Source: Holophagaceae bacterium (GTDB taxonomy: Bacteria > Acidobacteriota > Holophagae > Holophagales > Holophagaceae). From it: 47,474 nt of DNA. Below are positions 6,699 through 29,646 of this stretch, piece by piece. The notes under the pieces were generated by a model. It saw only the letters and a program-made list of their open reading frames with translations, had not been told where the DNA came from and searched no databases. Position 1 is the stretch's first letter. The number at the start of each line of letters is the position of its first letter. The stretch covers positions 1 through 47,474 of the forward strand of contig PLUC01000110.1 in NCBI GenBank assembly GCA_003165415.1. Reading direction: 5' to 3'. A program made the position numbers and the translations under genes.

Positions 6699-7841
6699 TC
6701 ACCACCGCACCGTCAAGCGGCTGCCGCCTTCGGGCCGCAGGACGATGACCAGATCGGCCCCCTGGACGTTGAGCCACTTGAGGGCCAGGGGCAGGCCCAG
6801 CCCGGTCCCGTCGGGACGGCCGCTTTCAAACGGCTTCAGCATCCGGGCGGCGGCCGCGGGGTCAAGGCCGGGCCCTTCGTCCAGGATCTCCAGCAGGCCG
6901 TCGGCGACGTCCACCTGCACCCGGCCCCCGGGCGGGGTGGCCTGGGCGGCGTTCTCCAGCAGGTTCACCAGGGCCTGGTGCAGCAGCATGGGGTCGGCCA
7001 GGGCCCGGCCCCGGCCGGACACCACGAAGGTCCGGTTCTGGAGGGCCGGCCGCCTGCGCACCTCGGCCGCGGCCTGGGCGGCCACCTCTTCCAACTGCAG
7101 GTCGGCGCACTGGGGCTCCAGGGGCCTGGCCCACTGCAGGAACCGCTGCACCAGGCGCTCCAGGGAGCCGGTCTCCTCCAGCAGGCCCTGGGCCGGTTCC
7201 ACCTGGCCGGCCCGCTGCAGGAGCTGGCCGTGCCCCTTCAGCACCGCCAGGCTGTTCTTCAGCTGGTGGGCCACGCCGGCGGTCATCTCCCCCAGCTCGG
7301 CGAACCGGTCCCGGAGCTGCTGGCGCCGTTCGTCCTGCTCCCACTGGGTGATGTCCTCGAACTCCAGCAGCGTGCCCACCATGTCCGGAGCCTCGATGCG
7401 CCGGAGCCGCCACCGGCGTTCGCCGCCGTCGCAGCGCCAGGCCGGGCCGGGCGCCTGGGCGAGCCCGGCCAGCAGCCAGGGGAAGGGCTCCAGCACGAAC
7501 CGGGCGTCCAGGCCGATGACCCCGGGCCTGACCCCCAGGAGGGCCCGGCCGGGGGCGTTGAGGGCCGCCACCCGCTGCCGCTGGTCCACCCACAGGATCC
7601 CGAACGGCAGGGCATCCAGCAGGCGCTCGTGCACGGTCCGCAGTTCCCCCAGGGTGGCCGCCAGCTGGCCCCGCTCCTGGAGGCTCTGGGAGACGGCCCC
7701 CAGCAGAAGCTCCTCCGGCTCCGCCCCTGAGCGGGGACGGAGCCGGATCCAGCGGTTGACGAACATGAACAGCCCCACCAAGCTCATGCCCAGCGGCAGG
7801 CCGAGCAGGATCCAGGCGGAAGCGGGGCTGGGGTGGGTCAC
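6699..7841 (-). CDS. Membrane-attached PAS-type sensor histidine kinase
   Basis: A 380-residue NtrB-like sensor kinase. Residues 9-29 form one membrane segment, 62-170 a PAS-like domain, and 175-240 the HisKA domain with phosphoacceptor H192 (AHQLKN). The ATPase domain holds the N-box N297, the DEGPGL box at 321-326 and a TGLGL lid at 346-350. The start is GTG at 7841; no ATG lies further upstream. No response regulator is adjacent, so it is an orphan whose partner must be elsewhere. It converges on the DUF4097 gene with 38 bases between the stops. Confidence 0.9.
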   Translation of the reverse strand: MTHPSPASAWILLGLPLGMSLVGLFMFVNRWIRLRPRSGAEPEELLLGAVSQSLQERGQLAATLGELRTVHERLLDALPFGILWVDQRQRVAALNAPGRALLGVRPGVIGLDARFVLEPFPWLLAGLAQAPGPAWRCDGGERRWRLRRIEAPDMVGTLLEFEDITQWEQDERRQQLRDRFAELGEMTAGVAHQLKNSLAVLKGHGQLLQRAGQVEPAQGLLEETGSLERLVQRFLQWARPLEPQCADLQLEEVAAQAAAEVRRRPALQNRTFVVSGRGRALADPMLLHQALVNLLENAAQATPPGGRVQVDVADGLLEILDEGPGLDPAAAARMLKPFESGRPDGTGLGLPLALKWLNVQGADLVIVLRPEGGSRLTVRW

Positions 7842-7871
7842 GGGCCGATTATACCCCAGCCCCGGAGGATA

Positions 7872-8447
7872 TTACGGGACCTTGGGCGCGGGAGCGGCCG
7901 GAGCCGGGGGGCAGGGGCACTGGCCCTTCATCATGGACCCGCCACCCATCCTGCCCTGCTCGAAGCCGCCCCAGCCGCCGCGGCCTTCCCGCCTCATCCC
8001 CATGCGCTGCCCCATCATGAAGGCCGCCTTCTCCCGCTGTTCGGGCGTGAGGATGGCGCGGAGTTCCTGGCGCACGGCCCGGCGCTCGAGGATGGCTTCG
8101 AGGCGGGCGTCAGCCTTGGCGCGGTTCAGGGTCTTGAGGGTGTCCGGGGCGGTATCGGGCTTCTGCATGGCCTCGAAGAAGGCCTTGCGGGCCTCCCGGG
8201 CGGCCTTGCCCTTGGCCTTCAGGCTGTCCTTGTGCTTCTCGATGACGGCCTTGCAGCTCGTCCTCTGGACCTCGGTGAGCTGGAGCTTGTCCGCCATCCG
8301 CTTCATCATCATGTCCCGGCGGCCTTCCGGCCCGGGGCACATCTTGGGCGCGGCAGGGGCGGGGGCTCCCTGGGCCATGGCCGGCAGCAGACCGGATCCC
8401 AGCGCGAGGGCGAATCCGAGTACGGTGAGCGTGTGATTGATCTTCAT
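7872..8447 (-). CDS. Spy/CpxP-family periplasmic LTxxQ protein
   Basis: A 191-residue exported protein with a signal peptide (1-26, ending AMAQ). The mature region is mostly basic alpha-helix and carries two LTxxQ motifs (57-61 and 133-137), the hallmark of the Spy/CpxP/CnrX family. Members act as periplasmic chaperones or as sensors that restrain envelope-stress or metal-responsive systems. The C-terminal tail is rich in Gly and Met (160-180) and ends in a CPCPP segment, hinting at metal contact, though this is inference. GAGG lies 8 bases before the ATG. The neighbouring upstream gene on the same strand is pap, separated by a hairpin. Confidence 0.8.
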   Translation of the reverse strand: MKINHTLTVLGFALALGSGLLPAMAQGAPAPAAPKMCPGPEGRRDMMMKRMADKLQLTEVQRTSCKAVIEKHKDSLKAKGKAAREARKAFFEAMQKPDTAPDTLKTLNRAKADARLEAILERRAVRQELRAILTPEQREKAAFMMGQRMGMRREGRGGWGGFEQGRMGGGSMMKGQCPCPPAPAAPAPKVP

Positions 8448-8536: not shown

Positions 8537-10015
8537 TCATAACCTGGCTTCGATCCCTTCACACAGGGTCCGGAGGATCTTGATCCTGCCAAAGTACTTG
8601 TCCTCGCTCTCCACCAGGGTCCAGGGGGCGATCTCGGTGCTGGTGCGTTCCAGCATGGCGCAGATGGCGGCTTCGTAACTATCCCATTTCGAGCGGTTGC
8701 GCCAGTCGTCGTCGGTGATCTTGAAGCGCTTGAAGGCGCTGTCCCGGCGCAGCTCGAACCGGCGGAGCTGTTCCTCCTGGCTGATGCTGAGCCAGAACTT
8801 CAGGATGATGCCGCCGCTGTTGTGGATCTGCTCCTCGAAGTCGTTGATCTCCCCGTAGGCCCGCATCCAGTCGGCCTCGCTGCAGAAGCCTTCCACCCGC
8901 TCCACCAGCACCCGGCCGTACCAGCTCCGGTCGAAGATGGCCAGGCGGCCCCGCCGGGGCAGGTTGCGCCAGAACCGCCAGAGGTAGGGCTGGGCCCGCT
9001 CCTCCTCGCTGGGGGCGGCGATGGGGGTGATGTGGCAGAGCCGGGCGTCGATGGCCTGGGTGATGCGGCGGATGGCGCCCCCCTTGCCGGCGGCGTCCAC
9101 CCCCTCGAACACCATGACGACGTTGTGGTCCCAGAAAGCCTTGTGCCGGGTCAGCAGGTTGAGCCGGCCCTGGTACTTCTCCAGTTCCCGCTCGTAGTCC
9201 GGCCTGCCCAGCTTCTGGCTCAGGTCCAGGGATTTCAGGATGTTCCGCCCGTCGAGGTCGGGCAGCGCGGCGGCGGCCTGGATGATCTCGGGCTGGGGCG
9301 CGGGGCGGTTCAGCCGGAGCCGGATCTGCTCCAACAGGGTCTTGCCCACCATCAGCTTCTGGTAGCGGGAGTCCACGGCCTCCACCTGGATCCAGGGGGC
9401 CTCGGCGGTGCTGGTGCGCCGCAGGGCCCGTTCGCTGACCTCCTGGAAGGTGTCGTACAGCTCGAAGTGTCTCCAGTCCCGTTCGGTCACCCGCCAGCGG
9501 GTCAGGGGGTCACTTTCCAGTTTCTTCAGGCGCCTTTTCTGGGCCAACCTGGACAGGTGCATCCAGAACTTGAGGATCACCGCCCCTTCGTCGATGAGCA
9601 TCTGCTCGAACCGGCGCACCTCTTCCAGGGCCTGGTCGAACTTGGGGTTCTTGATGCGGCCCGCGGCCCGCTCAAAGATGGGCCAGGCGTACCAGCTCCC
9701 GTCGAAGATGCCGATGCGGCCCTTGGGCGGGAGCTGGCGCCAGAACCGCCACATGTGCGGCCGCTCCAGCTCCTCGTCGGAGGGCGCGTCGGTGCCGTGG
9801 GTCTGGATGAACCGGGGGTCCATCCACTCATTGAGGGTGTTGGCGGTGGCGCTCTTGCCGGCCCCGTCCAGGCCGGCGATGAGGATGATCACCGGGAACT
9901 TCTTGCTGGTTTCCATATCGAACTGGGCGTTCAGCAGCGCTTCCCGCAGGGCTGGCAACTCTTTGTCGTAGGCGGACTTATAGACGGAATGGCCGAGTTC
10001 GGCGGATTCGAACAT
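8537..10015 (-). CDS. pap: Polyphosphate:AMP phosphotransferase (two-domain PPK2)
   Basis: A 492-residue tandem-domain PPK2 enzyme that transfers phosphate from polyphosphate to AMP, making ADP. Walker A motifs lie at 48-55 (GLDGAGKS) and 305-312 (GVDAAGKG). The C-terminal domain keeps the full FDRSWYGR motif at 361-368. In the N-terminal domain the equivalent is FDGSWYAW (104-111), so the Arg and Gly-Arg residues are lost. In the two-domain class the C-terminal half is generally the catalytic one, which agrees. Length and architecture are normal for the family. It stands alone with no ppk1 or ppx gene nearby. Confidence 0.95.
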   Translation of the reverse strand: MFESAELGHSVYKSAYDKELPALREALLNAQFDMETSKKFPVIILIAGLDGAGKSATANTLNEWMDPRFIQTHGTDAPSDEELERPHMWRFWRQLPPKGRIGIFDGSWYAWPIFERAAGRIKNPKFDQALEEVRRFEQMLIDEGAVILKFWMHLSRLAQKRRLKKLESDPLTRWRVTERDWRHFELYDTFQEVSERALRRTSTAEAPWIQVEAVDSRYQKLMVGKTLLEQIRLRLNRPAPQPEIIQAAAALPDLDGRNILKSLDLSQKLGRPDYERELEKYQGRLNLLTRHKAFWDHNVVMVFEGVDAAGKGGAIRRITQAIDARLCHITPIAAPSEEERAQPYLWRFWRNLPRRGRLAIFDRSWYGRVLVERVEGFCSEADWMRAYGEINDFEEQIHNSGGIILKFWLSISQEEQLRRFELRRDSAFKRFKITDDDWRNRSKWDSYEAAICAMLERTSTEIAPWTLVESEDKYFGRIKILRTLCEGIEARL

Positions 10016-10042
10016 GACGGCTCCCCTGAGGTTTGGTTCATA

Positions 10043-11269
10043 CTATCGCGGCTCGGGCAATTCCCATTCATCGAACCGGCGCAGCAGGAGCAGGCCGGGG
10101 ATGGCCAGGGCCATGCAGACCATGAAATACGCCGGCCAGCCGAAGGCCCCGGCCAGGATCCCGGCGGGGCTGGCGAACAGCACCCGGGCGGCGGCCGAAA
10201 GGCTGCTGAGCAGGGCGAACTGGGTGGCGGTGCTCTTGCGGTCGCAGCAGCGCTGGATCATGGCCAGATAGGCCACGGTGCCCATGGCGAAGACGGAATT
10301 CTCGACGGCGATGGTGACCAGCAGCAGGGCGTGGTTCTTGCCCAGGGTGGCCAGGGCCACGTGGCCGACCATGGAGACCATCTGCAGCAGGCCGAAGGTC
10401 CAGAGGGAACGGAGCAGGCTCCAGCGGCTCATGAGCAGGCCCCCCACCAGGCCACCAACGATCAGGCAGGCCATGCCCATGGCCTTGTTGGCCACCCCGA
10501 TCTCGGTCATGGAGAAGCCCAGGCCCATGAGGAAGGGCGTGTTGAGGGCGGTGCAGAGGTTGTCGCCCAGCTTGAACAGCAGGATGAAGGCCAGCACCTC
10601 CAGGGCCCCCTTGCGCCGGAGGAACTCGGTGAACGGTTTCACCACGGCTTCCCGGAGCGTCCTGGGCTGACTCAGGCCTTCCGGCTCCGGAGCCAGGAAG
10701 GTGGTCAGGGCTCCCGGCAGGAGCCCCAGGGCCATGATCACGTAGACCATGCGCCAGGACATCCGGTCCGCCAGGATCAGGGCCACCCCACCGGCGAACA
10801 CCATGCCCAGCCTGTAGGTGGTGATGTGCAGCCAGGTGCCCAGGCCCAGCAGTTTGGAGGGCAGCAGTTCGGTGCGGTAGGCGTCCACATTGATGTCCAC
10901 GCTGGCACTGAAGAAGGCCACCCCGAGGGCGAGGGCGGCCACCATCCGCAGGTGCTCCCTGGGGTCCGACTGGGCCAGGGCGGCGAGCAGCACCATGACG
11001 GTGATGAACATCAGCAGGATCCAGCCCCGCCGGCGCCCCAGGAAGGGCGGATGGAACCGGTCCATGATCGGCGACCACAGGAACTTGAGGGTGTACGGCA
11101 GGCCGGCCAGGGCGAAAAAGCCCATGGTCTTCAGATCGACCCCCGCGGTCTGCATCCATGCCTGCAGGGTGGAACCGGTGAGGAGCAGCGGAACGCCCGA
11201 CGTGAACCCAAAAAACCCCACCGTCGCGAGGACGGGCAGGCGGAGCGCTGGGCGGGAGGTTCCGTTCAT
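10043..11269 (-). CDS. ampG: AmpG-like muropeptide MFS permease
   Basis: A 408-residue inner-membrane permease with about 12 hydrophobic segments. The N-terminal GLPYTLKFLWSPIMDR stretch and the following RRRGW loop are characteristic of AmpG, which imports GlcNAc-anhydroMurNAc peptides released from peptidoglycan for recycling. The substrate is inferred from family resemblance. Ddl, a peptidoglycan precursor ligase, is encoded close by on the same strand, which fits cell-wall metabolism. No ampD or beta-lactamase gene is present here. Confidence 0.85.
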   Translation of the reverse strand: MNGTSRPALRLPVLATVGFFGFTSGVPLLLTGSTLQAWMQTAGVDLKTMGFFALAGLPYTLKFLWSPIMDRFHPPFLGRRRGWILLMFITVMVLLAALAQSDPREHLRMVAALALGVAFFSASVDINVDAYRTELLPSKLLGLGTWLHITTYRLGMVFAGGVALILADRMSWRMVYVIMALGLLPGALTTFLAPEPEGLSQPRTLREAVVKPFTEFLRRKGALEVLAFILLFKLGDNLCTALNTPFLMGLGFSMTEIGVANKAMGMACLIVGGLVGGLLMSRWSLLRSLWTFGLLQMVSMVGHVALATLGKNHALLLVTIAVENSVFAMGTVAYLAMIQRCCDRKSTATQFALLSSLSAAARVLFASPAGILAGAFGWPAYFMVCMALAIPGLLLLRRFDEWELPEPR

Positions 11270-11293
11270 CCCCCTAGGATGCCAGCAAACCGT

Positions 11294-11611
11294 TCATCCA
11301 TTCATGTCGAGGGCGGTTCCCAGCAGGCTGTTCTGCACCTGGGTGAACTTGAGATCAGCCTGGTAGGCGGTGCCCTGGACATCGAGATTGACCGCCTGGG
11401 TGGCCAGGTCCACGTTGCTGCCGCCCGGCTCCAGGGGCGCCTGGCTCTGCTGCACGGCCGCGCCGTATACCCCGCCCCCGGGCAGGGTCTCCTGCACCAG
11501 ACTCTGGGACCGGAAGCCGGCGCTGTTGACATTCGCCACATTGTTGGCCGACAGGGCGATGCTTTGGGCCGAGGTGCTCAGGCCGGACAGGCTCGCCCAA
11601 ATTCCGTCCAT
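11294..11611 (-). CDS. Small flagellar rod/hook-like protein (FlgC-like)
   Basis: A 105-residue protein. The N terminus (residues 8-33, with SANNVANVNSAGF) is the classic motif of flagellar basal-body rod and hook proteins (FlgB, FlgC, FlgE, FlgG). The C-terminal half (66-100) resembles the FlgC-type C-terminal helix that packs with it. It is shorter than usual FlgC (about 130-150 residues) because the central part is minimal. No other flagellar gene lies in the window, so it may be a rod paralogue used elsewhere or a remnant. It lies between ampG and ddl on the same strand. Confidence 0.75.
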   Translation of the reverse strand: MDGIWASLSGLSTSAQSIALSANNVANVNSAGFRSQSLVQETLPGGGVYGAAVQQSQAPLEPGGSNVDLATQAVNLDVQGTAYQADLKFTQVQNSLLGTALDMNG

Positions 11612-11662
11612 GACATCCCCCTTGGGCCCAAGGATAAGTTGAACTCGCTAACAAGCAAGGCG

Positions 11663-12754
11663 TTACTGCGCGAACCACTGGCTGCCGCTCTGGAAGAACC
11701 GGGTCTTGGCGTCCTTGTCCTGGTGCCGGCGCAGGGCCAGGTCGATCAGCCGGCTGAGCAGGTCCCGGTATGGGATGCCGCTGGCCTCCATGAGCTTGGG
11801 ATACATGCTGATGCTGGTGAAGCCCGGGATTAGGTTGATCTCGTTGAGGTACAACAGACCGGTGGTGCGGTCCAGGAAGAAATCCACCCGGGCCATGCCG
11901 TAGGCGTCCAGGGCCCGGAACGCGGCCATGGCGTAGCGGGTGATGAGGTTGGCCATGCCTTCGGGCAGATCGGCCGGGATTTTGACATAACTTTTGCCGT
12001 CAATATATTTATCTTTGAAATCGTAGAACTCGCCGGCCACCATGATCTCTCCGGGCACGCTCACGAAGGGGTCGTCCCCGCCCAGGACCGCCACTTCCAG
12101 TTCCCTGGCGTTGACGCCCTGCTCCACCAGCACCCGGCGGTCGAAACCGAAGGCCCGGTCCAGGGCCGCCGGGAGGTCCTCGGCCGTCTTCACCTTCTCG
12201 ATGCCGATGCTGGAGCCGAGGTTGGCCGGCTTGACGAACAGCGGCAGGCCCAAGTGCTCCAGGCTGTGCAGGATGGGCTGGGGCGACCTGCGCCAGTGCT
12301 CCTCGGTGAGGCCGCGGTAGGGCACCACCGGCAGGCCTTCGTTCTCCCAGATGCGCTTGGTGATCCACTTGTCCAGGGCCACGGCCATGGCCAGCAGGCC
12401 GGCGCCGGTGTAGGGCCGGTGCAGGGGCTCCAGGTAGCCCTGGATCTGGCCGTCCTCGCCCCCGGCCCCGTGGATGGCGTTGAAGAACACGTCGGGCAGC
12501 GGCGCGGCCTCGGCGCCCCGCTCCAGGGGCAGGAACGGGCATTCGCCGCGCTGGGGCAGTTCCCCGGCCGACAACCGGGCCAGGGGATCGCCGTTCATCA
12601 CCCAGACGCCGTTGCGGGCGATGCCCATGGGCCGGACCTGGAACCGGGCCGGATCCAGGTGGGCGGCGATGCTCCGGGCGGTGACGATGCTCACTTCGTG
12701 CTCGGGGCTTTCACCGCCGAACAGGAGGCCTACGGAAAGACGGGCATTTGTCAT
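11663..12754 (-). CDS. ddl: D-alanine--D-alanine ligase
   Basis: A 363-residue ATP-grasp ligase joining two D-Ala residues for peptidoglycan precursors. The N terminus has the FGGESPEHEVS motif (12-22) typical of Ddl, the middle the KPANLGSSIGI ATP-binding segment, and the C terminus the NEINLIPGFT magnesium-binding segment. The ATG at 12754 lacks a strong ribosome binding site. The gene is divergent from coaD with 46 bases between them, which must hold both promoters. The stretch before the start is locally A/T-rich. Family assignment is firm. Confidence 0.96.
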   Translation of the reverse strand: MTNARLSVGLLFGGESPEHEVSIVTARSIAAHLDPARFQVRPMGIARNGVWVMNGDPLARLSAGELPQRGECPFLPLERGAEAAPLPDVFFNAIHGAGGEDGQIQGYLEPLHRPYTGAGLLAMAVALDKWITKRIWENEGLPVVPYRGLTEEHWRRSPQPILHSLEHLGLPLFVKPANLGSSIGIEKVKTAEDLPAALDRAFGFDRRVLVEQGVNARELEVAVLGGDDPFVSVPGEIMVAGEFYDFKDKYIDGKSYVKIPADLPEGMANLITRYAMAAFRALDAYGMARVDFFLDRTTGLLYLNEINLIPGFTSISMYPKLMEASGIPYRDLLSRLIDLALRRHQDKDAKTRFFQSGSQWFAQ

Positions 12755-12800
12755 AGCAAAAAGTTTAAACTAACATTCCTTTCCCGCCGAAGGAGTTCCA

Positions 12801-13295
12801 TTGCGCGTCGCCATCTACCCAGGATCCTTCGACCCCGTCACCCTTGGCCACTGGGACCTCATCCAACGCGCCGGAAGGCTGGTGGACCGGCTGGTGGTGG
12901 CGGTCCTGTACAACCCGGCCAAGACCTGCGCCTTTTCCGTGGCGGAGCGGGTGGATTTCCTGCGGGAGCTGCTGGCCGACACCCCCCATGTGGAGATCGC
13001 CACCTTCCACGGCCTGCTGGTGGACTACGCCAAGCAGCAGGAGGCCCACTTCATCGTCCGCGGGGTGCGGGCCTTCTCGGACTTCGAATACGAGTTCCAG
13101 ATGGCCCTGATGAACCGCAAACTGGCCCCGGACCTGGAGACGGTGTTCCTCATGCCCAAGGAGGAGTATAGCGTGGTGAGCAGCCGGATGGTGCGGGAGG
13201 TGGGCGCCATGGGCGGGGACATCTCCGGGCTGGTGCCGGAGATGCTGGTGGAGCGCATCGCCTCACGGCTGCTGAACCCGGCTCAGTTGGGCTGA
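12801..13295 (+). CDS. coaD: Phosphopantetheine adenylyltransferase
   Basis: A 164-residue nucleotidyltransferase catalysing the penultimate step of coenzyme A synthesis. It begins with YPGSFDPVTLGH, where the TxGH motif binds ATP, and carries the SSRMVRE segment typical of CoaD near residue 130. The start is TTG at 12801, supported by AGGAG six bases upstream and by the exact position of the family N terminus. It slightly overlaps the convergent DUF3299 gene end. Confidence 0.96.
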   Translation: MRVAIYPGSFDPVTLGHWDLIQRAGRLVDRLVVAVLYNPAKTCAFSVAERVDFLRELLADTPHVEIATFHGLLVDYAKQQEAHFIVRGVRAFSDFEYEFQMALMNRKLAPDLETVFLMPKEEYSVVSSRMVREVGAMGGDISGLVPEMLVERIASRLLNPAQLG

Positions 13296-13768
13296 CCCTC
13301 GGTGGTGACCCGCTCGGCGTCCATCTGGTAGATGGAGCAGAGGAAGGTGCCCTCCCACCGCTCCCGCACGTGCAGGTGGCCGACCACGGTCACGGGGGTG
13401 TCCATCAGCACCTTGGTGGGGGTGTCGATCTTGAGCACTTCCACCACCTCGTGCAGTTCCGGGGGGATGCCGAAGCAGCAGGTGTTCTGGGTGCGCAGCA
13501 GCATGAACTCCGTGACCAGCCGGTTGTGGATCCGGATGGGCAGCATGAAGCCGGTGAGGGCCACTTCCCTGCCGTCCAGGCTGCGGATCGACTCGGGGAT
13601 GAAGGCGCGCACGTGGCCGGGCTTGGCCTTGAAGATGGCGTCGGGCAGGTGGAAGCCGGCCAGCACCTTGAAGGAGGTCTTCAGGGGGCCGGAGGGGGCC
13701 TGGGGGGTGGTGGCGGCCAGGCTCAGGGCGGCGAGCACCGGCAGCAGCTTGGCGAATGGACGGATCAT
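13283..13768 (-). CDS. DUF3299 secreted protein (copy 1)
   Basis: A 161-residue protein with a signal peptide (about 1-20). The core (65-150) matches DUF3299 and carries the CCFGIPP segment that is also present, as CCFGFPP, in the neighbouring paralogue. DUF3299 proteins are periplasmic with an OB-fold-like beta barrel and unknown function. They are often found beside ABC export systems. The two Cys residues could form a disulphide or bind metal (inference). It is 12 bases downstream of the second copy and so probably co-transcribed with it. Its end overlaps that of coaD by 13 bases. Confidence 0.8.
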   Translation of the reverse strand: MIRPFAKLLPVLAALSLAATTPQAPSGPLKTSFKVLAGFHLPDAIFKAKPGHVRAFIPESIRSLDGREVALTGFMLPIRIHNRLVTEFMLLRTQNTCCFGIPPELHEVVEVLKIDTPTKVLMDTPVTVVGHLHVRERWEGTFLCSIYQMDAERVTTEGQPN

Positions 13769-13780
13769 GGGCGCTTCTTT

Positions 13781-14335
13781 CTATTCGAGGCCTTCGGACT
13801 GGGGTGTGCGGGCCAGCAGCAGGGGCTTCAGCGGGGATCCCGAAGTCACGGTGTCCGCCTCCATCTGGTAGAGGGAACCGAGGTCGCGCCCGGCCCAATG
13901 CTCCTGGATATGGAATTGTCCCACCACGTTCACGATCCTGTCCATGAGCGGCTGGGCGGAAGCGCCGGTCATGCGCACTTCCAGCACGTCGGAAATCTGG
14001 GGCGGGAACCCGAAGCAGCAGCTGGCCTGGCTGCGCACCAGGAGGAATTCCCTGACCCGGTGGTTCTCGGTCACGGTGGGGATCATGAAACCCTGGATGA
14101 GAACCTGCTGGCGGTCCAGCTGGAGGATCGACTTGGGCAGGCATTTCAGGTAATCCCCCTGCCTGGCACGCCCGCCGGGATCCGGCAGCCGGGCCGATGC
14201 CAGGTCGCCGAAGCCCACCAGGGTCACCCCGGGGGGGACCTTCACCGCCGGCGGCGCGTCCCGCACCTCCAGGCCTACGCCGTAGGCCAGGATGCTGCCG
14301 AAGCAGGCGAGGGTGATTTTTACCAAAAGGTTCAT
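13781..14335 (-). CDS. DUF3299 secreted protein (copy 2)
   Basis: A 184-residue paralogue of the adjacent protein. An N-terminal hydrophobic segment (4-20) serves as a signal or membrane anchor. The DUF3299 core (about 60-165) includes CCFGFPP and the conserved IQGFMIP, FLLVRSQ and YQMEAD segments. Sequence similarity to copy 1 runs the length of the core, so the pair arose by tandem duplication followed by strong divergence. Function is unknown. It is the first gene of the two-gene minus-strand unit; the region upstream is shared with the divergent zinc-ribbon gene. Confidence 0.8.
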   Translation of the reverse strand: MNLLVKITLACFGSILAYGVGLEVRDAPPAVKVPPGVTLVGFGDLASARLPDPGGRARQGDYLKCLPKSILQLDRQQVLIQGFMIPTVTENHRVREFLLVRSQASCCFGFPPQISDVLEVRMTGASAQPLMDRIVNVVGQFHIQEHWAGRDLGSLYQMEADTVTSGSPLKPLLLARTPQSEGLE

Positions 14336-14468
14336 AGACCAGCCAGTCCGAAGGTTCAGACGTTCATGACTATGAGGATAGGTCCCATCCCGTTCCTCTG
14401 CCAGGGAAATGGAAAAGGAGGTAGGCTTTCCTCACCCACCAGGACCCCATTCCGAGCCAGGAGCCACC

Positions 14469-14690
14469 ATGGACGAGCCCACCGTCTCCAATGTCAGCTT
14501 CGGCGAGGCTGAATACATGATGGAAAAGCCCCTGCCCTGCCCCCACTGCCACCAGCTGATCAGTTCGGTGGTCATCGTCCGCCTGCTCCGGGGCCGGGTC
14601 AACTTCGTCTCCACTCTCCCCAGGCGGGGCCACGTGGCGGCCTGCCCGGCCTGCCAGGGCATCCTTTCGGTGGGGCTGGGCGGGCTCTAG
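14469..14690 (+). CDS. Small zinc-ribbon-like protein
   Basis: A 73-residue protein with two knuckles: CPHC near residues 24-27 and CPAC near 61-64. That spacing suggests one zinc ribbon. The intervening segment is basic and hydrophobic. I do not recognise the family. AGGAG six bases before the ATG at 14469 supports the start; an upstream ATG at 14409 lacks such a site. A hairpin directly follows the stop. It may be a nucleic acid- or protein-binding adaptor, but nothing in the context shows which. Confidence 0.6.
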   Translation: MDEPTVSNVSFGEAEYMMEKPLPCPHCHQLISSVVIVRLLRGRVNFVSTLPRRGHVAACPACQGILSVGLGGL

Positions 14691-14722
14691 CAGCCGTTAT
14701 TGAGCTCGCTCCGTTACGGCTG
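14691..14722. repeat. Hairpin of the CAGCCGTT...ACGGCTG family, copy 1
   Basis: Outer arms CAGCCGT and ACGGCTG flank an inner GAGC/GCTC pairing. It starts immediately after the stop of the zinc-ribbon gene and lies between two converging genes, as expected for a bidirectional terminator. A closely related, longer hairpin occurs at 46973-47008 in the same post-gene position. Confidence 0.6.
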
Positions 14723-14762
14723 TGCCAAGGCGCATGCCGAATCAAGACGCTATCTAACGGTA

Positions 14763-16856
14763 TCAGGAGATTTCCGCCAGCTTCAGCCGGGCCTGCTCCT
14801 GCTTCAGCCAGACCGTCTGCGGCTCGCTGAGGCCGCGCTGGACGGCCCTGTCCGCGGCTTCCCGGCACAGGTTCAGGAGCTGCCGGTCGCGCACCAGGTC
14901 CGCGGCCTGGAACTGGGGCAGGCCGGCCTGGCGGGTGCCGAAGAACTCCCCCGGCCCCCGCAGCTCCAGGTCCTTCTGGGCGATGCGGAAGCCGTCCTGG
15001 GTCTCCACCAGCACCCGCAGGCGCTCGGTGTCGCTGGCGGAGAGCATCAGGAAGTGGCTGCGGGCCTCGCCCCGGCCCACGCGCCCGCGCAGCTGGTGGA
15101 GCTGGCTGAGGCCGAACCGCTCGGCGTGGTCCACCACCATGACCGTGGCGTTGGCCACGTCCACGCCCACCTCGATCACCGTGGTGGCGAGCAGGATCCG
15201 GGCCCGGCCGGCCACGAACGCCTCCATGCGCTCGGCCATGGCGTCGGCCTTGAGCCGGCCGTGGACCACCGCCAGCTCGAAGTCGGGAAACAGGGCCCGG
15301 AGCAGCGCCTCCATGGCCTGGATGTCCCTCAGCGGCACCTTGCCTTCGTCCTGGGGATCGATGGCCGGGCTCACCACGAAGGCCTGGTGCCCCGCCTCCA
15401 GCTCCCGCCGCACCAGCTCCCAGGCACGCTCGGCGTCGGCGGGATCCAGCAGCCGGGTGGTGATGGGCTGGCGCCCCGGCGGCAGTTCGTCCAGCACCGA
15501 CTGCTCCAGGTCGCCGAACAAGGCCAGGGCCAGGGAACGGGGGATGGGGGTGGCGCTCATCACCAGCCAGTGGGGATCCAGGCCCTTCTGCTTGAGCGCT
15601 TCCCGCTGGCGCACCCCGAACCGGTGCTGCTCGTCCACCACCACCAGCTGGAGCCTGCTGAAGGACACCGCTTCCTGGAACAGGGCGTGGGTGCCGATGA
15701 TGTAGGAAGCCTCGCCGGAGGCGATCCGGGCCAGGGCCTGGCGCTTCTCCGCCGTCTTCATGGGGCCCAGCAGCAGCACCATGCCGCCCGCGGATTCCTT
15801 CAGCAGCCGCTGGATGGTGGCGGCGTGCTGCCTGGCCAGCACTTCGGTGGGCACCAGCAGCGCCGCCTGGCAACCGGTCTCGGCCACCATGGCCATGGCC
15901 AGGAAGGCCACCAGGGTCTTGCCGCTGCCCACGTCGCCCTGCAGGAGCCGGTGCATGACCCGCCCCGACGTGAGGTCGGCCACGATCTCCCGGAACGCCT
16001 GGCGCTGGGCGGCGGTGAGCCGGAAGGGAAGGTAGTCCTTGAGCCGTTCCCGCAGTTCCGGGGTGGTGGGCACGGCCTGTCCGCGCCGGGCCATGCGCCC
16101 GGCCCGGCGCAGGGTCACCCCCAGGGCGAAGGCGAACAGCTCTTCGCTGGCCAGGCGCTGGTGGGCGGGGGTGGCGTGCGCGTCCAGCTCGGCCGGGTCG
16201 CTGTCGTCCGGGGGCTGGTGCAGGAGGCGCAGGGCGGCCAGGGTCCCGGGCACCCCCCGGGCCAGTTCCGCGGGCAGCCATTCCTCGGGATCCGCGGCCC
16301 GGGCCAGGGCCTCCTGCACCATCCGCTGGCGGGCCCGGCCCATGACCGGTCCCAGCTTGCGGTACAGGGGCAGGTAGCGGCGCACCCACAGGTTGTCCTC
16401 GTCGCCGCCCCGGCCCATGAGCTCGAACGCCGGCCCGCGCATTTCCAGGCCGTGGCGGCCCGAGGCCAGCGGCCCGAACACCAGCACCCGGTCCCCGGCC
16501 CGGAACAGCTTGCCCACATAGGGCTGGTTGAACCAGACCAGGCGCAGCGTGCCGGTGCCGTCGGTGATGAGCGCCTCGGTGAGGCTCATGCGCTGAACCC
16601 GGGTGGTGCTCTGGCGGAGATCCTGGATGGTGCCCAGCACGGTCACGATCTCCCGGTCGCCCGGGTCCGGGCGGAAGTCCAGCTCGCCGATCTTCTGCAG
16701 GCTGCCGCGATCCACGTAGCGGTGCGGCAGGGCCCAGAGCAGGTCCTTCAGGGTCTGGATCCCGGCCGCCTCCAGCGCCTCGGCGTACACCGGTCCCACC
16801 CCGCGCAGGGCGGTGACCTTGGTGGCGAGGGGGAACCGGGGGAGGGATTCGGCCAT
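14763..16856 (-). CDS. recG: ATP-dependent DNA helicase RecG
   Basis: A 697-residue superfamily 2 helicase that reverses stalled replication forks and migrates Holliday junctions. An N-terminal wedge/OB region (about 60-160) binds the junction. Walker A is GDVGSGKT at 307-314, the DEQHRFG box lies near 408, and SATPIPR and the later helicase motifs follow. The C terminus has the usual GPGEFFGTRQAG element. The length is typical. It begins 2 bases after the dnaB stop, so it is translated in one unit with dnaB. Confidence 0.97.
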   Translation of the reverse strand: MAESLPRFPLATKVTALRGVGPVYAEALEAAGIQTLKDLLWALPHRYVDRGSLQKIGELDFRPDPGDREIVTVLGTIQDLRQSTTRVQRMSLTEALITDGTGTLRLVWFNQPYVGKLFRAGDRVLVFGPLASGRHGLEMRGPAFELMGRGGDEDNLWVRRYLPLYRKLGPVMGRARQRMVQEALARAADPEEWLPAELARGVPGTLAALRLLHQPPDDSDPAELDAHATPAHQRLASEELFAFALGVTLRRAGRMARRGQAVPTTPELRERLKDYLPFRLTAAQRQAFREIVADLTSGRVMHRLLQGDVGSGKTLVAFLAMAMVAETGCQAALLVPTEVLARQHAATIQRLLKESAGGMVLLLGPMKTAEKRQALARIASGEASYIIGTHALFQEAVSFSRLQLVVVDEQHRFGVRQREALKQKGLDPHWLVMSATPIPRSLALALFGDLEQSVLDELPPGRQPITTRLLDPADAERAWELVRRELEAGHQAFVVSPAIDPQDEGKVPLRDIQAMEALLRALFPDFELAVVHGRLKADAMAERMEAFVAGRARILLATTVIEVGVDVANATVMVVDHAERFGLSQLHQLRGRVGRGEARSHFLMLSASDTERLRVLVETQDGFRIAQKDLELRGPGEFFGTRQAGLPQFQAADLVRDRQLLNLCREAADRAVQRGLSEPQTVWLKQEQARLKLAEIS

Positions 16857-26328: not shown

Positions 26329-26625
26329 CTACAGGTCGATTTCCCCGACGCCCAGTTCCTCGGCCGTGTCCTCGCCGCCGTCCTTGATGGCGGGGGAAAC
26401 GTCAAGGTCCGGTTCCAGGCCGAGCATTTCGCTGGAAGAGGCGAAGATCTGGGCGACGGTCTGCTTGCGGGTCTCCAGGGTCTGGATCAGTTCCTGCACC
26501 CGCTTGATCTCGTCATTGAGCCGCTGCCATTCGACCAGGATGGCCTTGTTCATCTGCTCCACTTCGGTGCGGCAGCGGTCCCGGGCCTGACTGTAGAAAT
26601 CCTGTTGGTCTTGATTGAGATCCAT
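26329..26625 (-). CDS. Small coiled-coil protein of unknown function
   Basis: A 98-residue, highly charged protein. Residues 5-62 are predicted by eye to be a single long helix with heptad-like hydrophobic spacing. An acidic tail rich in Glu and Asp follows (78-98). It has no signal peptide or membrane segment. I do not recognise the family. GGAG five bases before the ATG at 26625 supports the start over longer ORF options. It lies alone, and its upstream side faces the AT-rich region before the secreted-peptide genes. Confidence 0.65.
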   Translation of the reverse strand: MDLNQDQQDFYSQARDRCRTEVEQMNKAILVEWQRLNDEIKRVQELIQTLETRKQTVAQIFASSSEMLGLEPDLDVSPAIKDGGEDTAEELGVGEIDL

Positions 26626-27046
26626 GGAAGCTCCGAAGGGGGATTGGGGGGTGGGGCCGGGGTTGGTGGGGTGGCTCAAGGATAACGCCATTGAACAGGT
26701 TCTGTCCCAAATCATCCCGGCCTTCCATGGGCGGGGGCCCTGGCCGGCCTGCCTTGACCGAACGGTTGGATGGTTGCCGTCCCTTGTCAAAATATTAAAT
26801 TATTATTGTTTATAAATAGACTCGAATCAATTCTATGAACTTTTTGACTTAGTTCATCATATCTTGCATTCACAATTTTAAATTAAGGCGTTTTTATTTT
26901 CTCTATTATATTATATGTATTATAAAAATTTTTCAATTAATAACGATTGGATATCCCATTTGACAAAATCACAAGGGACTTTAACCTGATATTCCTCTGT
27001 GCAAGGCGCATAGGGACGATTCAAAACCATGCTATTTGGAGTATAC
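26626..27046. promoter_or_regulatory. AT-rich non-coding region upstream of the peptide genes
   Basis: This 421-base gap holds no convincing gene. From about 26780 to 27010 base composition drops sharply: 25 G or C in the 120 bases 26821-26940 (21%), against the G+C-rich surroundings. It contains many TATAAT-like hexamers, for example around 26805-26815 and 26900-26925, and a TTGACT at about 26843. Such a stretch suits a strong or nucleoid-protein-silenced promoter for the downstream peptide genes, or it came with them. No specific transcription start can be fixed. Confidence 0.6.
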
Positions 27047-27394
27047 ATGCAATTTAAAAATGCCCTCGGTCTGGTTGCATTGGATGACCGGGATCTCGAG
27101 TGGGTAACCGGATCCGTCCTACCCCCTTTCGACCCGTGGAAATGGGGACCAGGGAAAGGTGGGGAGGTGCACGTCGACCTTTCCGGGCCTCCCCTCACGG
27201 GAACCGTCGGCGGCAGCTATTCCGATGCCAACGGCAGCAGGATCGCGGGAGCCCTGTCCACGGACGGCATGGGCTGGTCGGCCGGGGTTGGTGGCTCCGT
27301 GACGTCGCGATCCGGTATGACCTCGATATCGGGATCGGCCCAATCGGATGGTCACGACTGGATGGTCCTGGGCAGCATCACCCTCAGGTTCTAA
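27047..27394 (+). CDS. Candidate secreted peptide with double-glycine-type leader (peptide 1)
   Basis: A 115-residue protein. Residues 11-23 fit the double-glycine leader pattern read back from the predicted cut after S23: L12 (-12), D16 (-8), L17 (-7), V20 (-4), G22 (-2), S23 (-1, GS variant). Such leaders are cleaved by C39 peptidase domains of ABC exporters. The rest (24-115) starts with an aromatic, Pro-rich piece and continues as Gly/Ser-rich alternating strands ending in LRF, unlike a classical bacteriocin. GGAG lies 5 bases before the ATG at 27047, preferred over the ATG at 27029. No family is recognised. The next gene begins 2 bases after the stop. Confidence 0.65.
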   Translation: MQFKNALGLVALDDRDLEWVTGSVLPPFDPWKWGPGKGGEVHVDLSGPPLTGTVGGSYSDANGSRIAGALSTDGMGWSAGVGGSVTSRSGMTSISGSAQSDGHDWMVLGSITLRF

Positions 27395-27396
27395 CC

Positions 27397-27657
27397 ATGT
27401 CGCCGCAATGGTTCAACCCAACCGGCGAAGGCAGGCCGAACGGCGGGCCCTTGGCGCCCCTCCTCCCTGAAGATTGCCTGGAAATACGGGGAGGCGCCCC
27501 GCCTGGATGCGCCAGCACGCCACCGCACGCTCTTTCGAGGCCGGTGCTCCCGGTGCCGCTGCCCTTCCCGAAACCCCCTCGGCCCATGCCCTTCCCGTTC
27601 CCGAAGCCCCAGCCCGGGCCGTTCCCGAACCCCATGCCGTCGCCGTACCCGAGATGA
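27397..27657 (+). CDS. Candidate proline-rich cationic peptide with GG leader (peptide 2)
   Basis: An 86-residue protein. Leader residues 22-33 fit the double-glycine pattern: L22 (-12), D26 (-8), C27 (-7, usually Leu), I30 (-4), G32-G33. The predicted core (34-86) has 23 Pro in 53 residues, largely as X-Pro dipeptides, with five Lys/Arg and no acidic residue. That resembles proline-rich antimicrobial peptides, which bind the ribosome, although sequence homology is not shown. Codons have G or C in most third positions, supporting real coding. The start is 2 bases after the previous stop, indicating coupled translation. A Cys lies at 38. No exporter or immunity gene is recognisable nearby. Confidence 0.6.
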   Translation: MSPQWFNPTGEGRPNGGPLAPLLPEDCLEIRGGAPPGCASTPPHALSRPVLPVPLPFPKPPRPMPFPFPKPQPGPFPNPMPSPYPR

Positions 27658-27681
27658 CCCTGACCATGGACCCCAGGGTCA
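27655..27681. terminator. Hairpin between the converging peptide and kinase genes
   Basis: Arms TGACCCTG (27655-27662) and CAGGGTCA (27674-27681) are perfectly complementary. They contain the stop codons of both converging genes. It may serve as a bidirectional terminator, though no T-run follows. Confidence 0.45.
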
Positions 27682-29646
27682 CTTGGCCAGGACCTCCCGG
27701 AGCACCCAGGCCGCCAGGATGGCCAGGACGCCGAAAGCGGCCAGCAGCCAGGGACGGACCTGGCGCGGCCGGACCGGGGCGGCGGGCGCGGGTGGGGGGA
27801 GGGCCGGGATCCCGGGACCGGGCTCCAATCCCGAAAGGGTGGGCGTATCCTCCATGGCGCTGGCCGCGGGCACCGGCGTGGCCTGACCCCGGGGTTCCGG
27901 GAGGGTGGCGGGGGTGAGTTCCGGCAGGGGGGGCGCGAACCGGGTGGACAGCAGGGACTCCGACTCCTCCCGGGTCCCCTTCAGCAACGTGTTCACGTAC
28001 TCCGCCAGGTCGTGCTCGCTCGGTTCGTAACCATGCTTGGCCAGCAGGGCCTTCAGGTCCCGCTCCAGCATTCGCGCCGAAGCGTAGCGCCGGTCCACAT
28101 CCTTCTGCAGGACCTTTTCGAGGATGGCCCCCATTTCCACGGAGATGCCAGGGTTGAGGGTGCGGACGTCCATCACCTTGCCCAAGCGCACTTTCTCCAG
28201 GACACCCAGTTCCGAATCGGCCTGGAAACACCTCTCCCCGGTGAGCAGTTCCGCCAGGACCAGACCGAGGGAGTAGATGTCGGAGCGTCCGTCCAGAGGC
28301 TGCCCGAGGGCCTGTTCGGGGCTCATGTAGAGCAGCTTCCCCTTCAGGGAGCCGGACAGGGTCTGGGTGCTCTTGGAGGCTGCCTTGGCGATGCCGAAAT
28401 CCACCAGCTTCACTGCCCCCTCGTAGGAGATCAGGATGTTCTGGGGACTGATGTCCCGGTGGACGAGCTTGAGCTCCTTGTCGTCGATGGCCCGCTTCCG
28501 GTGGGCGTAGTCCAAGGCGCCCGCCACCTTCATGATGACCGTGGCGGCCAGGGCTTCCGGCATGGGGAGCTTGTATTCCCTGACCTTGCGCAGCAGGTTG
28601 CGCAGATCCCGGCCATCCACGTATTCCATGGCGATGTAATAGAAACCGCTGGCTTTCCCCAGATCGAATATCTGCACGATATTGGGATGGCTGAGCTGGG
28701 CCGCCAGCTTCGCCTCGTCGATGAACATCCGGACAAACTCGTCGGTGTCCGACAAGTGGGGAAGAATCCGTTTGATCGCCACGATCTTTTCGAAGTTGTG
28801 GACCCCGCGCTGCCGGGCCTTGAACAATTCGGCCATGCCCCCGACCGCCACCTTTTCCAGCAGGTTGTAGTTCCCGAACTGCTCCAGGACCTCTTCCGCT
28901 TCGGGGCCGCCGGGGGGGAGCTCAGCCGGGGCGGTGACAGCGGCGATGGCCGGAGCTTGGGCAGCGGGCAACGAGGGAACCGTCATGCCCGGACGGGTCT
29001 TGGTTTCTCCCACCACCGGGGCCGACGCAGGGGCGGGAACCGGACGGGGCGCAGCCGCCGGAAGGGGCACCGGAGCGGGGGATGGGGCCGCCGCCACGGT
29101 CTCCGGCGCGGGGGGCCGGGCCGCCGCCACGGGCTCCGGCGCGGGGGGCCGGGCCGCCGCCAGGGGCTCCAGCGCGGGAGGCGGGGCCGCCGCCGGGGGC
29201 TCCGCCATGGGCGCCCCCTCCAGATCGCTGAGGATGTCGCCGAACAGGTCCTCGGCCGTGTACTTCCGTGCCGGCTCGCCGCCTACCTTCAGCAACCGGC
29301 CCAGGTGGTCGGCCCAGGCCTCCGGGCCCGCTTGGCGGTCCAGGCGGGACATCGGCTCCAGTTCTTCCGGATCGAACCACCCGGGATCCTGCCCGGGCGC
29401 GCCCAGGGCGACCAGAGGCAGCTGCGGATTCCTGGCCCGCAGGGCCCGGAGTGCCACGATCCCCCGGGGACCCACGGTGGCGGGATCGAACACCGCGAGG
29501 TCGGGCATGGCTCCATCGGCCAGCGGAGCGGCCGGGTCCGAACTGTCGGCCCAATCCAGATCCCAGCCCTGGGCTTCCATTTCCTGGAGGAGGCCTGGGG
29601 TGCGGAAGGCAGCTCCGTCCAGGACGATAATGGCCAAACGTTTCAT
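27679..29646 (-). CDS. Tail-anchored Ser/Thr protein kinase with pseudo-receiver domain
   Basis: A 655-residue Hanks-type kinase. Residues 1-120 resemble a degenerate receiver domain (start KRLAIIVLDG, DLAVFDP near the phosphorylation site). A long Ala/Pro linker (145-245) contains tandem ARPPAPE-type repeats. The kinase domain (about 258-530) has the VGGMAE loop, K292, HRDISPQN with D398 and DFG with D416, all intact. A second Pro-rich stretch precedes one C-terminal membrane helix (about 631-648), placing the kinase in the cytoplasm on the inner membrane. The substrate is unknown. GAGGGA just before the ATG supports the start. It is divergent from rpsU and convergent with the peptide genes. 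Confidence 0.92.
   Translation of the reverse strand: MKRLAIIVLDGAAFRTPGLLQEMEAQGWDLDWADSSDPAAPLADGAMPDLAVFDPATVGPRGIVALRALRARNPQLPLVALGAPGQDPGWFDPEELEPMSRLDRQAGPEAWADHLGRLLKVGGEPARKYTAEDLFGDILSDLEGAPMAEPPAAAPPPALEPLAAARPPAPEPVAAARPPAPETVAAAPSPAPVPLPAAAPRPVPAPASAPVVGETKTRPGMTVPSLPAAQAPAIAAVTAPAELPPGGPEAEEVLEQFGNYNLLEKVAVGGMAELFKARQRGVHNFEKIVAIKRILPHLSDTDEFVRMFIDEAKLAAQLSHPNIVQIFDLGKASGFYYIAMEYVDGRDLRNLLRKVREYKLPMPEALAATVIMKVAGALDYAHRKRAIDDKELKLVHRDISPQNILISYEGAVKLVDFGIAKAASKSTQTLSGSLKGKLLYMSPEQALGQPLDGRSDIYSLGLVLAELLTGERCFQADSELGVLEKVRLGKVMDVRTLNPGISVEMGAILEKVLQKDVDRRYASARMLERDLKALLAKHGYEPSEHDLAEYVNTLLKGTREESESLLSTRFAPPLPELTPATLPEPRGQATPVPAASAMEDTPTLSGLEPGPGIPALPPPAPAAPVRPRQVRPWLLAAFGVLAILAAWVLREVLAK

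What the first reader, a model, noticed from the sequence alone, without database searches (positions are those of the whole stretch)
27047..27657. Two coupled genes with double-glycine leaders, one with a proline-rich cationic core
Both adjacent small proteins match the double-glycine leader pattern (hydrophobic -12, acidic -8, Leu/Cys -7, Val/Ile -4, Gly -2). The chance of two neighbours doing so by accident is low. The second has a 53-residue predicted core with 23 Pro, five Lys/Arg and no acidic residue, mostly X-Pro dipeptides, which resembles eukaryotic proline-rich antimicrobial peptides. The first has a different core: aromatic/Pro, then Gly/Ser-rich strands ending in LRF. No recognised modification, immunity or C39-exporter gene lies nearby, so the export system would be elsewhere. 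This is the best candidate here for an undescribed system.
Basis: partly seen in the sequence, partly recalled or inferred. Interest (0 to 1): 0.82.

Follow-up and report, generated by a model that had tools for sequence, protein, structure and literature searches.

The report
Relocating cassette of predicted secreted peptides
A small gene cassette encodes a fast-changing peptide with an export-and-cut tag that relatives in the same bacterial genus also carry, plus a proline-rich partner found only here; its job is unknown, but a secreted surface or antimicrobial peptide is most likely.

Summary
Window 27047-27394 (pep1, 115 aa) and 27397-27657 (pep2, 86 aa) both fit the double-glycine-type leader (ending GS and GG). 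Pep1 is real and belongs to an unnamed family: 6 of 6 searched genomes of its genus carry one member with leader L-(T/D)-x-x-x-L-x-x-V-x-G-S; no credible member appeared in 71 other family genomes or a phylum sample, though these searches can miss divergent ones. Five species hold it beside gluQ; here that site is empty and the cassette sits in a 1,053-bp insertion beside a kinase gene, absent from the other five. The genome has two C39-ABC exporter genes, one in a conserved HlyD/C39-ABC/second-ABC set. The core is predicted as an amphipathic beta-meander, weakly for pep1 itself. Pep2 has no homologue found; its leader beats chance (3 of 2,493 background starts) but fits the family profile poorly. 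Most likely: a secreted beta-sheet peptide of surface or matrix type, exported in trans, with a species-specific proline-rich partner; bacteriocin is the chief rival. The eukaryote-like antimicrobial reading of pep2 is unproven.

The parts
26626..27678. 1,053-bp insertion between the 98-aa gene and the Ser/Thr kinase gene, holding the cassette; the same junction is 67, 77, 87 and 87 bp in four other species of the genus and about 75 bp, counted by hand, in the fifth (G068)
26780..27030 (.). AT-rich upstream region (120-bp windows down to 22% GC; flanks about 57-73%); likely promoter/5' region
   Evidence: promoter role inferred (one search found no plus-strand sigma-70-like site)
27019..27028 (+). 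ATTCAAAACC element: exact in G067, one mismatch in G070, two in G068, only AAAACC shared in G069, not in G066; only match of WTTCAAAMCC in the window
27038..27041 (+). GGAG, likely ribosome-binding site of pep1
   Evidence: sequence
27047..27394 (+). pep1, 115-aa precursor; leader 27047-27115 (ends V-T-G-S), core 27116-27391 (92 aa, predicted beta-meander)
27397..27657 (+). pep2, 86-aa probable precursor; leader 27397-27495 (ends I-R-G-G), core 27496-27654 (53 aa, 23 Pro)
27549..27653 (+). four in-frame 8-residue repeats, about PxPxP(F/Y)P(K/N/R), in the pep2 core (24-nt units, spacings 33, 24, 24; 71-79% identical to the reference copy)

Best explanation
Pep1 is the local member of a genus-wide, single-gene family of C39-processed secreted peptides. 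The 23-residue leader is cut after Gly-Ser by a C39 peptidase-ABC exporter encoded elsewhere, most likely the conserved HlyD/C39-ABC/second-ABC set on contig C132, and the core (79-92 residues across the family) leaves the cell through a TolC-type channel. Outside it folds or assembles as an amphipathic antiparallel beta-meander and acts at the cell surface or in the extracellular matrix, in the manner of the cyanobacterial EbfG peptides. Pep2 is a species-specific second precursor in the same cassette that supplies a stiff, basic proline-rich rod. The cassette, with its upstream element, has moved or been acquired anew: it lies at gluQ in five species and beside a kinase gene here. Shown: family, conserved leader, insertion, presence of exporters and of outer-membrane channel domains. 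Inferred: which exporter, use of the cleavage site, beta assembly, matrix role, and that pep2 is made.
For: Homologues of pep1 at E 1.6e-9, 3.3e-8 and 9.8e-8 in G070, G068, G067; G069 by a profile without it, E 1.3e-13; G066 by a leader-only profile without it, E 1.6e-4, at the gluQ place: 6 of 6 genus genomes. Leave-one-out leader scores 24-36 bits against a best unrelated 11.8 among 2,500 starts. dN/dS 0.50-0.54 in three species pairs against 0.18-0.24 for gluQ: constrained but fast evolving. C39 genes in 6 of 6 genus genomes and 12 of the 71 other family genomes; the C132 C39-ABC is 85% and 80% identical to those of G070 and G067, and G070, a one-contig genome rated 98% complete, shows that C39 gene alone. 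OEP (TolC-type) domains present. Beta-type hydrophobic moment above all 500 shuffles in 4 of 6 cores; best AlphaFold2 models have 6 strands for the L143 core (pLDDT 76) and 5 for pep1 (pLDDT 73). No membrane-protein-like ORF in the insertion: of 11 ORFs of 30 or more codons the highest 19-residue mean hydropathy is 1.06, in pep1 itself. EbfG1-4 are GG-motif peptides depending on a C39 transporter, EbfG1-3 reported to form amyloid (passages of PMC4997328 and PMC9981879).
Against: No direct evidence of secretion, cleavage or assembly. Pep1's own beta moment is marginal (38 of 500 shuffles reach it) and G066's is ordinary (80 of 500). The five AlphaFold models score 76, 76, 62, 54, 50 for L143 and 73, 48, 40, 39, 39 for pep1. 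No fold match at E <= 0.001. The C39 genes found are on other contigs or at least 0.78 Mb from the peptide gene, and the C132 exporter lies beside an ATP-grasp maturase with its own small-protein candidate, so it may serve that. A soluble immunity protein cannot be excluded. Pep2 is weak: no homologue found, leader-profile rank 63 of 2,500, not among the 37 leader-profile matches at E <= 10.
Confidence: 0.4

Rival explanations
1. Class II microcin-like bacteriocin: pep1 (with or without pep2) is exported by the same route and kills or inhibits related bacteria, with immunity supplied elsewhere, by the exporter, or by a gene I did not recognise.
For: Double-glycine-type leader, C39 exporter with HlyD and OEP-domain proteins in the genome, fast-evolving cores, different place between species, NHLM-type exporter models are named as bacteriocin exporters; cores of the other five species carry net charge +1 to +5.
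Against: Class II microcins are described with a cognate immunity protein, 51-216 aa, near the precursor (PMC9746304 passages); no credible one was recognised in the 1,053-bp insertion, although immunity proteins share no sequence and unscored antisense ORFs exist. Pep1 core charge is -2.
Confidence: 0.32
2. Pep2 is a bacterial proline-rich antimicrobial peptide acting inside target cells; pep1 is its helper.
For: 23 of 53 core residues are Pro, 5 basic, none acidic, 20 X-Pro; leader motif in 3 of 2,493 background starts.
Against: Basic density is low, no homologue found, octapeptide repeats fit a structural rod at least as well; the only NCBIfam match is TonB at E 3.5.
Confidence: 0.08
3. Pep2 is not a gene: the ORF and its GG motif are chance in GC-rich DNA, and only pep1 is real.
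For: No homologue, codon usage unlike the host, frame open for 189 codons through pep1, poor family-profile score.
Against: ATG 2 bp after the pep1 stop, leader motif at the right distance, in-frame 24-nt repeats, third-position GC 0.80; pep1, which has homologues, has equally unusual codon usage.
Confidence: 0.3
4. Pep1 is an outer-membrane beta-barrel subunit of trimeric-autotransporter type (4-5 strands per chain) and the leader likeness is secondary.
For: Ends in Phe with alternating strands; chains of the AtaA and Hia anchor domains stand at ranks 4, 9, 10 and 13 of the Foldseek list at 19-20% identity.
Against: Those matches have E 0.49-1.0; a YadA_anchor search of six genus genomes did not list pep1 or its relatives among its 11 matches at E <= 10; no Pfam match; the leader is the best conserved part.
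Confidence: 0.06

Closest known systems
EbfG1-4 / PteB of Synechococcus elongatus (GG-motif biofilm peptides)
   Same: Small GG/GA-leader precursors without known domains that depend on a C39 transporter; beta-prone cores, EbfG1-3 amyloid-forming (passages of PMC4997328, PMC9981879)
   Different: No sequence relation shown (not tested against EbfG sequences); four EbfG genes lie together, here one family gene per genome and the exporter is unlinked
Class II microcins
   Same: Double-glycine-type leader; C39-ABC, HlyD and OEP-domain proteins present in the genome
   Different: No immunity gene recognised, exporter unlinked, phylum Acidobacteriota; activity unknown
NHLP/Nif11-leader RiPP systems with NHLM exporters
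   Same: The exporter genes best match the NHLM models TIGR03796/03797 (the HlyD gene matches TIGR03794 too, but TIGR01843 better)
   Different: All below the cut-offs; pep1/pep2 leaders match no NHLP or Nif11 model and no modifying enzyme was recognised in the cassette
Eukaryotic proline-rich antimicrobial peptides (recalled: Bac5, Bac7, PR-39)
   Same: Proline-rich, basic, X-Pro pattern
   Different: Lower basic density (recalled comparison), bacterial C39-type leader, octapeptide repeats; no homology shown

Membership tests
   pep1 and homologues strongly (G066 has His at -8), pep2 by pattern only, with Cys at -7
Double-glycine-type leader peptides | C39 peptidase-ABC exporter in the genome | tested here: met
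   two genes, 126 and 118 bits against a cut-off of 22
Double-glycine-type leader peptides | Cleavage after Gly-Ser/Gly-Gly and export | not testable with these tools
   needs in vitro cleavage or mass spectrometry
Class II microcin | Adaptor (HlyD) and TolC-type outer-membrane protein in the genome | tested here: met
   HlyD, below the TIGR01843 cut-off; 24 OEP-domain matches
Class II microcin | Immunity gene near the precursor | tested here: inconclusive
   11 ORFs of 30 or more codons in the insertion, none with a membrane-type segment and none credible by codon usage where scored, but immunity proteins share no sequence and pep1 itself scores poorly on codons
Class II microcin | Antibacterial activity | not testable with these tools
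   none
NHLP/Nif11 RiPP | NHLP or Nif11 leader domain | tested here: not met
   no Pfam or NCBIfam match at E <= 10 for pep1, pep2 or four homologues, except a TonB model at E 3.5 for pep2; the G066 member was not scanned
NHLP/Nif11 RiPP | NHLM exporter equivalog | tested here: inconclusive
   best model in each of the 5 C39-ABC genes tested, but below cut-off (e.g. 694 of 853 bits)
EbfG-like matrix peptide | Amyloid or surface assembly | not testable with these tools
   only beta-sheet prediction
EbfG-like matrix peptide | Precursor genes next to the C39 transporter gene | tested here: not met
   C39 genes on other contigs or at least 0.78 Mb away
Proline-rich antimicrobial peptide | Proline-rich, basic, no acidic residues | tested here: met
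   (pep2): 23 Pro, 5 K/R, 0 D/E of 53
Proline-rich antimicrobial peptide | Uptake by and action on bacteria | not testable with these tools
   none
Trimeric autotransporter anchor (YadA_anchor) | Match to PF03895 | tested here: not met

The most novel reading that the evidence does not exclude
A relocating one- or two-gene cassette, with its own upstream element, feeds an unlinked conserved C39 exporter in every searched species of one Acidobacteriota genus; its leader is fixed while the secreted beta-sheet core diverges, and in this species it has gained a second, octapeptide-repeat proline rod, making a two-component (sheet plus rod) extracellular system not tied to an immunity gene.
Probability: 0.25. 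Interest if true: 0.68.

Novelty: new variant of a known kind. Interest (0 to 1): 0.5.

Why it matters
Double-glycine peptides with distant exporters are easily missed where searches look beside the exporter. Here a leader-only profile built from five sequences found the sixth, so the same step could be repeated in other Gram-negative groups. One relative, in a one-contig genome with a single C39 gene found, makes the exporter-substrate pairing directly testable, and would show whether such orphan peptides are weapons or building material.

Tried and rejected
Rejected or dropped: (1) G145 match in another family (E 1.2e-4): one TAG inside, overlapping frames of poor coding character; I take it as chance. 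(2) Weaker leader-profile matches: C223 and C209 of this genome were first viewed on the wrong strand and again on the right one; neither is a credible precursor. The C197 core match (E 0.02) was not looked at, nor most of the other low-scoring rows. (3) Pep2 homologues: best other match in the genus E 0.003 with a stop inside, none of the 12 rows followed further. (4) The loose leader pattern in 24 gluQ loci of other genera gave 14 short matches in 8 loci; one form, LS-x-x-E-x-E-E-A-G-G-(A/G), recurs in 5 loci at the far end of the stretch, probably part of a neighbouring gene; none lies in the gluQ-methyltransferase gap. (5) PDB profile searches: only matches of E 0.21 or worse. (7) Promoter scan: two minus-strand sites, no plus-strand one. 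(8) Repeats in 26500-27800 other than those in pep2: one 15-nt direct pair and one imperfect 16-nt inverted pair, neither at the insertion ends. (9) Papers: nine searches (in only part of the hits was listed) showed no title or abstract start describing this family; I saw passages of PMC4997328, PMC9981879 and PMC9746304, and listings of the rest.

Full report
WHAT IS THERE. The window is contig C178 of a 4.84-Mb genome (completeness 94.19, contamination 7.38). Two small plus-strand genes lie at 27047-27394 (pep1, 115 aa) and 27397-27657 (pep2, 86 aa), 2 bp apart. Each has a leader of the double-glycine type, ending V-T-G-S in pep1 and I-R-G-G in pep2. Its core holds four in-frame repeats of eight residues.

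IS IT CHANCE? In 269,732 bases (the window and 15 fetched stretches) 2,500 ATG starts of ORFs of 50-250 codons were tested with the leader pattern at leader distance. Ten rows matched: six are family members (pep1 with two starts), one is pep2, three are unrelated; so 3 of 2,493 background starts. The starts are not independent and the stretches were partly picked for holding family members. A position-specific score from six leaders gives each left-out member 24-36 bits, the best unrelated start 11.8 and pep2 3.6, rank 63 of 2,500. A five-leader profile over six genomes found those five and the sixth member in G066 (E 1.6e-4), but not pep2, among 37 matches at E <= 10. So pep1's leader is secure; pep2's is a pattern match, better than chance but outside the family profile.

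A GENUS-WIDE FAMILY. Pep1 finds relatives in G070, G068 and G067 (E 1.6e-9 to 9.8e-8); a profile of these four finds G069 (E 1.3e-13); the leader profile finds G066. That is 6 of 6 genomes of the genus held. In the other 71 genomes of the family the four-row profile gave only matches of E 0.0147 or worse. That same profile missed the G066 member, so divergent members elsewhere could be missed too. In 396 phylum genomes (394 outside the genus, at least 20 of them from the same family; mostly 12 candidates scored per genome) a six-row profile gave at E <= 0.001 only G000, G066 and one match in G145 that I judge chance. Neither Pfam nor NCBIfam matched pep1 or four of its homologues at E <= 10 (the G066 member was not scanned). 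Between G070, G067 and G068 dN/dS is 0.50-0.54, against 0.18-0.24 for the neighbouring gluQ: protein-level constraint, but loose.

IT CHANGES PLACE. In G066, G067, G069 and G070 the family gene lies in a gap of about 444-745 bp between gluQ and a methyltransferase-like gene (gene starts extrapolated; that label is my reading of the sequence, Pfam gave no match). In G068 the contig ends soon after the start of that gene. In the window's genome the two genes are about 20-30 bp apart with nothing between. Of 24 gluQ loci from other genera, 15 show the methyltransferase-like match with gaps of 20-194 bp and 9 show none; none shows a credible precursor in the gap. The window copy sits in 26626-27678, between a kinase gene and a 98-aa gene, both on the other strand. 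In four other species that junction is 67, 77, 87 and 87 bp, and about 75 bp in G068 (hand count). The element ATTCAAAACC, at -28 to -19 from the pep1 start, recurs exactly in G067, with one mismatch in G070 and two in G068, at about the same distance; G069 shares only AAAACC and G066 lacks it. The pattern WTTCAAAMCC occurs once in the window, 0.07 expected. I read this as gene and upstream element travelling together; it is modest evidence. The insertion is AT-rich upstream and pep1 and pep2 have third-position GC of 0.71 and 0.80 against 0.88-0.95 in the five relatives, which suggests a recent arrival. No repeats mark its ends; I did not search for transposase genes.

EXPORTER. On C132, HlyD, C39-ABC and a second ABC gene lie in a row; the two ABC genes match the NHLM models best, below cut-off, and the HlyD gene matches TIGR01843 best, also below cut-off. 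The C39-ABC is 85%, 80% and 58% identical to genes of G070, G067 and G066; partial copies stand near contig ends in G069 and G068. G070, in one contig, shows only this C39 gene, so there it is the only candidate found. On C132 an ATP-grasp maturase of the MvdC/MvdD kind (subfamily scores below cut-off) and a 79-aa small protein lie downstream, so in this genome the exporter may have another client. The other exporter, on C15, lies beside a LanB-type dehydratase and a LanC-like protein. C39 genes occur in 12 of the 71 other family genomes, so exporters occur without a recognised family peptide. OEP domains are present.

WHAT THE CORE MAY DO. The 170-degree hydrophobic moment exceeds all 500 shuffles in 4 of 6 cores; pep1 is marginal (38 of 500 reach it) and G066 ordinary (80 of 500). 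AlphaFold2 with a two-sequence alignment gives a six-strand meander for the L143 core (mean pLDDT of the five models 76, 76, 62, 54, 50; pTM 0.52) and five strands for pep1 (73, 48, 40, 39, 39; pTM 0.52). Foldseek found nothing at E <= 0.001 for either. None of 11 ORFs of 30 or more codons in the insertion has a membrane-type segment; a soluble immunity protein is not excluded. I prefer a surface or matrix role, as for the EbfG peptides, to a bacteriocin, but not strongly (0.40 to 0.32).

NOVELTY. Leader, exporter type and route are of known kinds. New, as far as these searches go, are the family itself, its restriction to one genus, the unlinked exporter, the change of place, and the proline-repeat partner. 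I rate it a new variant of a known kind. No description of it showed in the listings of nine paper searches, which cover open-access text only.

Noticed in passing
L058 (G000:C15) 13597-13863 +: 89-aa ORF with a GG leader (...LLADHSAEVHGG) and a Cys- and Pro-rich core, directly before a LanC-like and a LanB-type gene and opposite the C39-ABC/HlyD set: an apparent class I lanthipeptide-type cluster with proline runs in its precursor.
   Followed up: partly
L057 (G000:C132) 937-2871 -: ATP-grasp peptide maturase of the MvdC/MvdD type (below cut-off) with a 79-aa small protein (TLTEAELDQAWGVGA) next to the conserved NHLM-like exporter: a possible graspetide cluster.
   Followed up: partly
L067 (G067:C1:149500-169000) 7524-8209 -: Two paralogous small proteins that look like nitrile-hydratase-type leader precursors (recalled likeness, not tested) beside a second C39 exporter of G067.
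   Followed up: no
L069 (G066:C1:2800000-2819500) 8798-14846: A C39-ABC gene appears split: positions 2-42 and 41-131 of the C39 profile lie about 4 kb apart, with two minus-strand genes among those between, suggesting an insertion inside the gene. Described only.
   Followed up: no
window 26780-27030: 250-bp stretch with 120-bp windows down to 22% GC inside a 57-73% GC region, upstream of pep1.
   Followed up: partly
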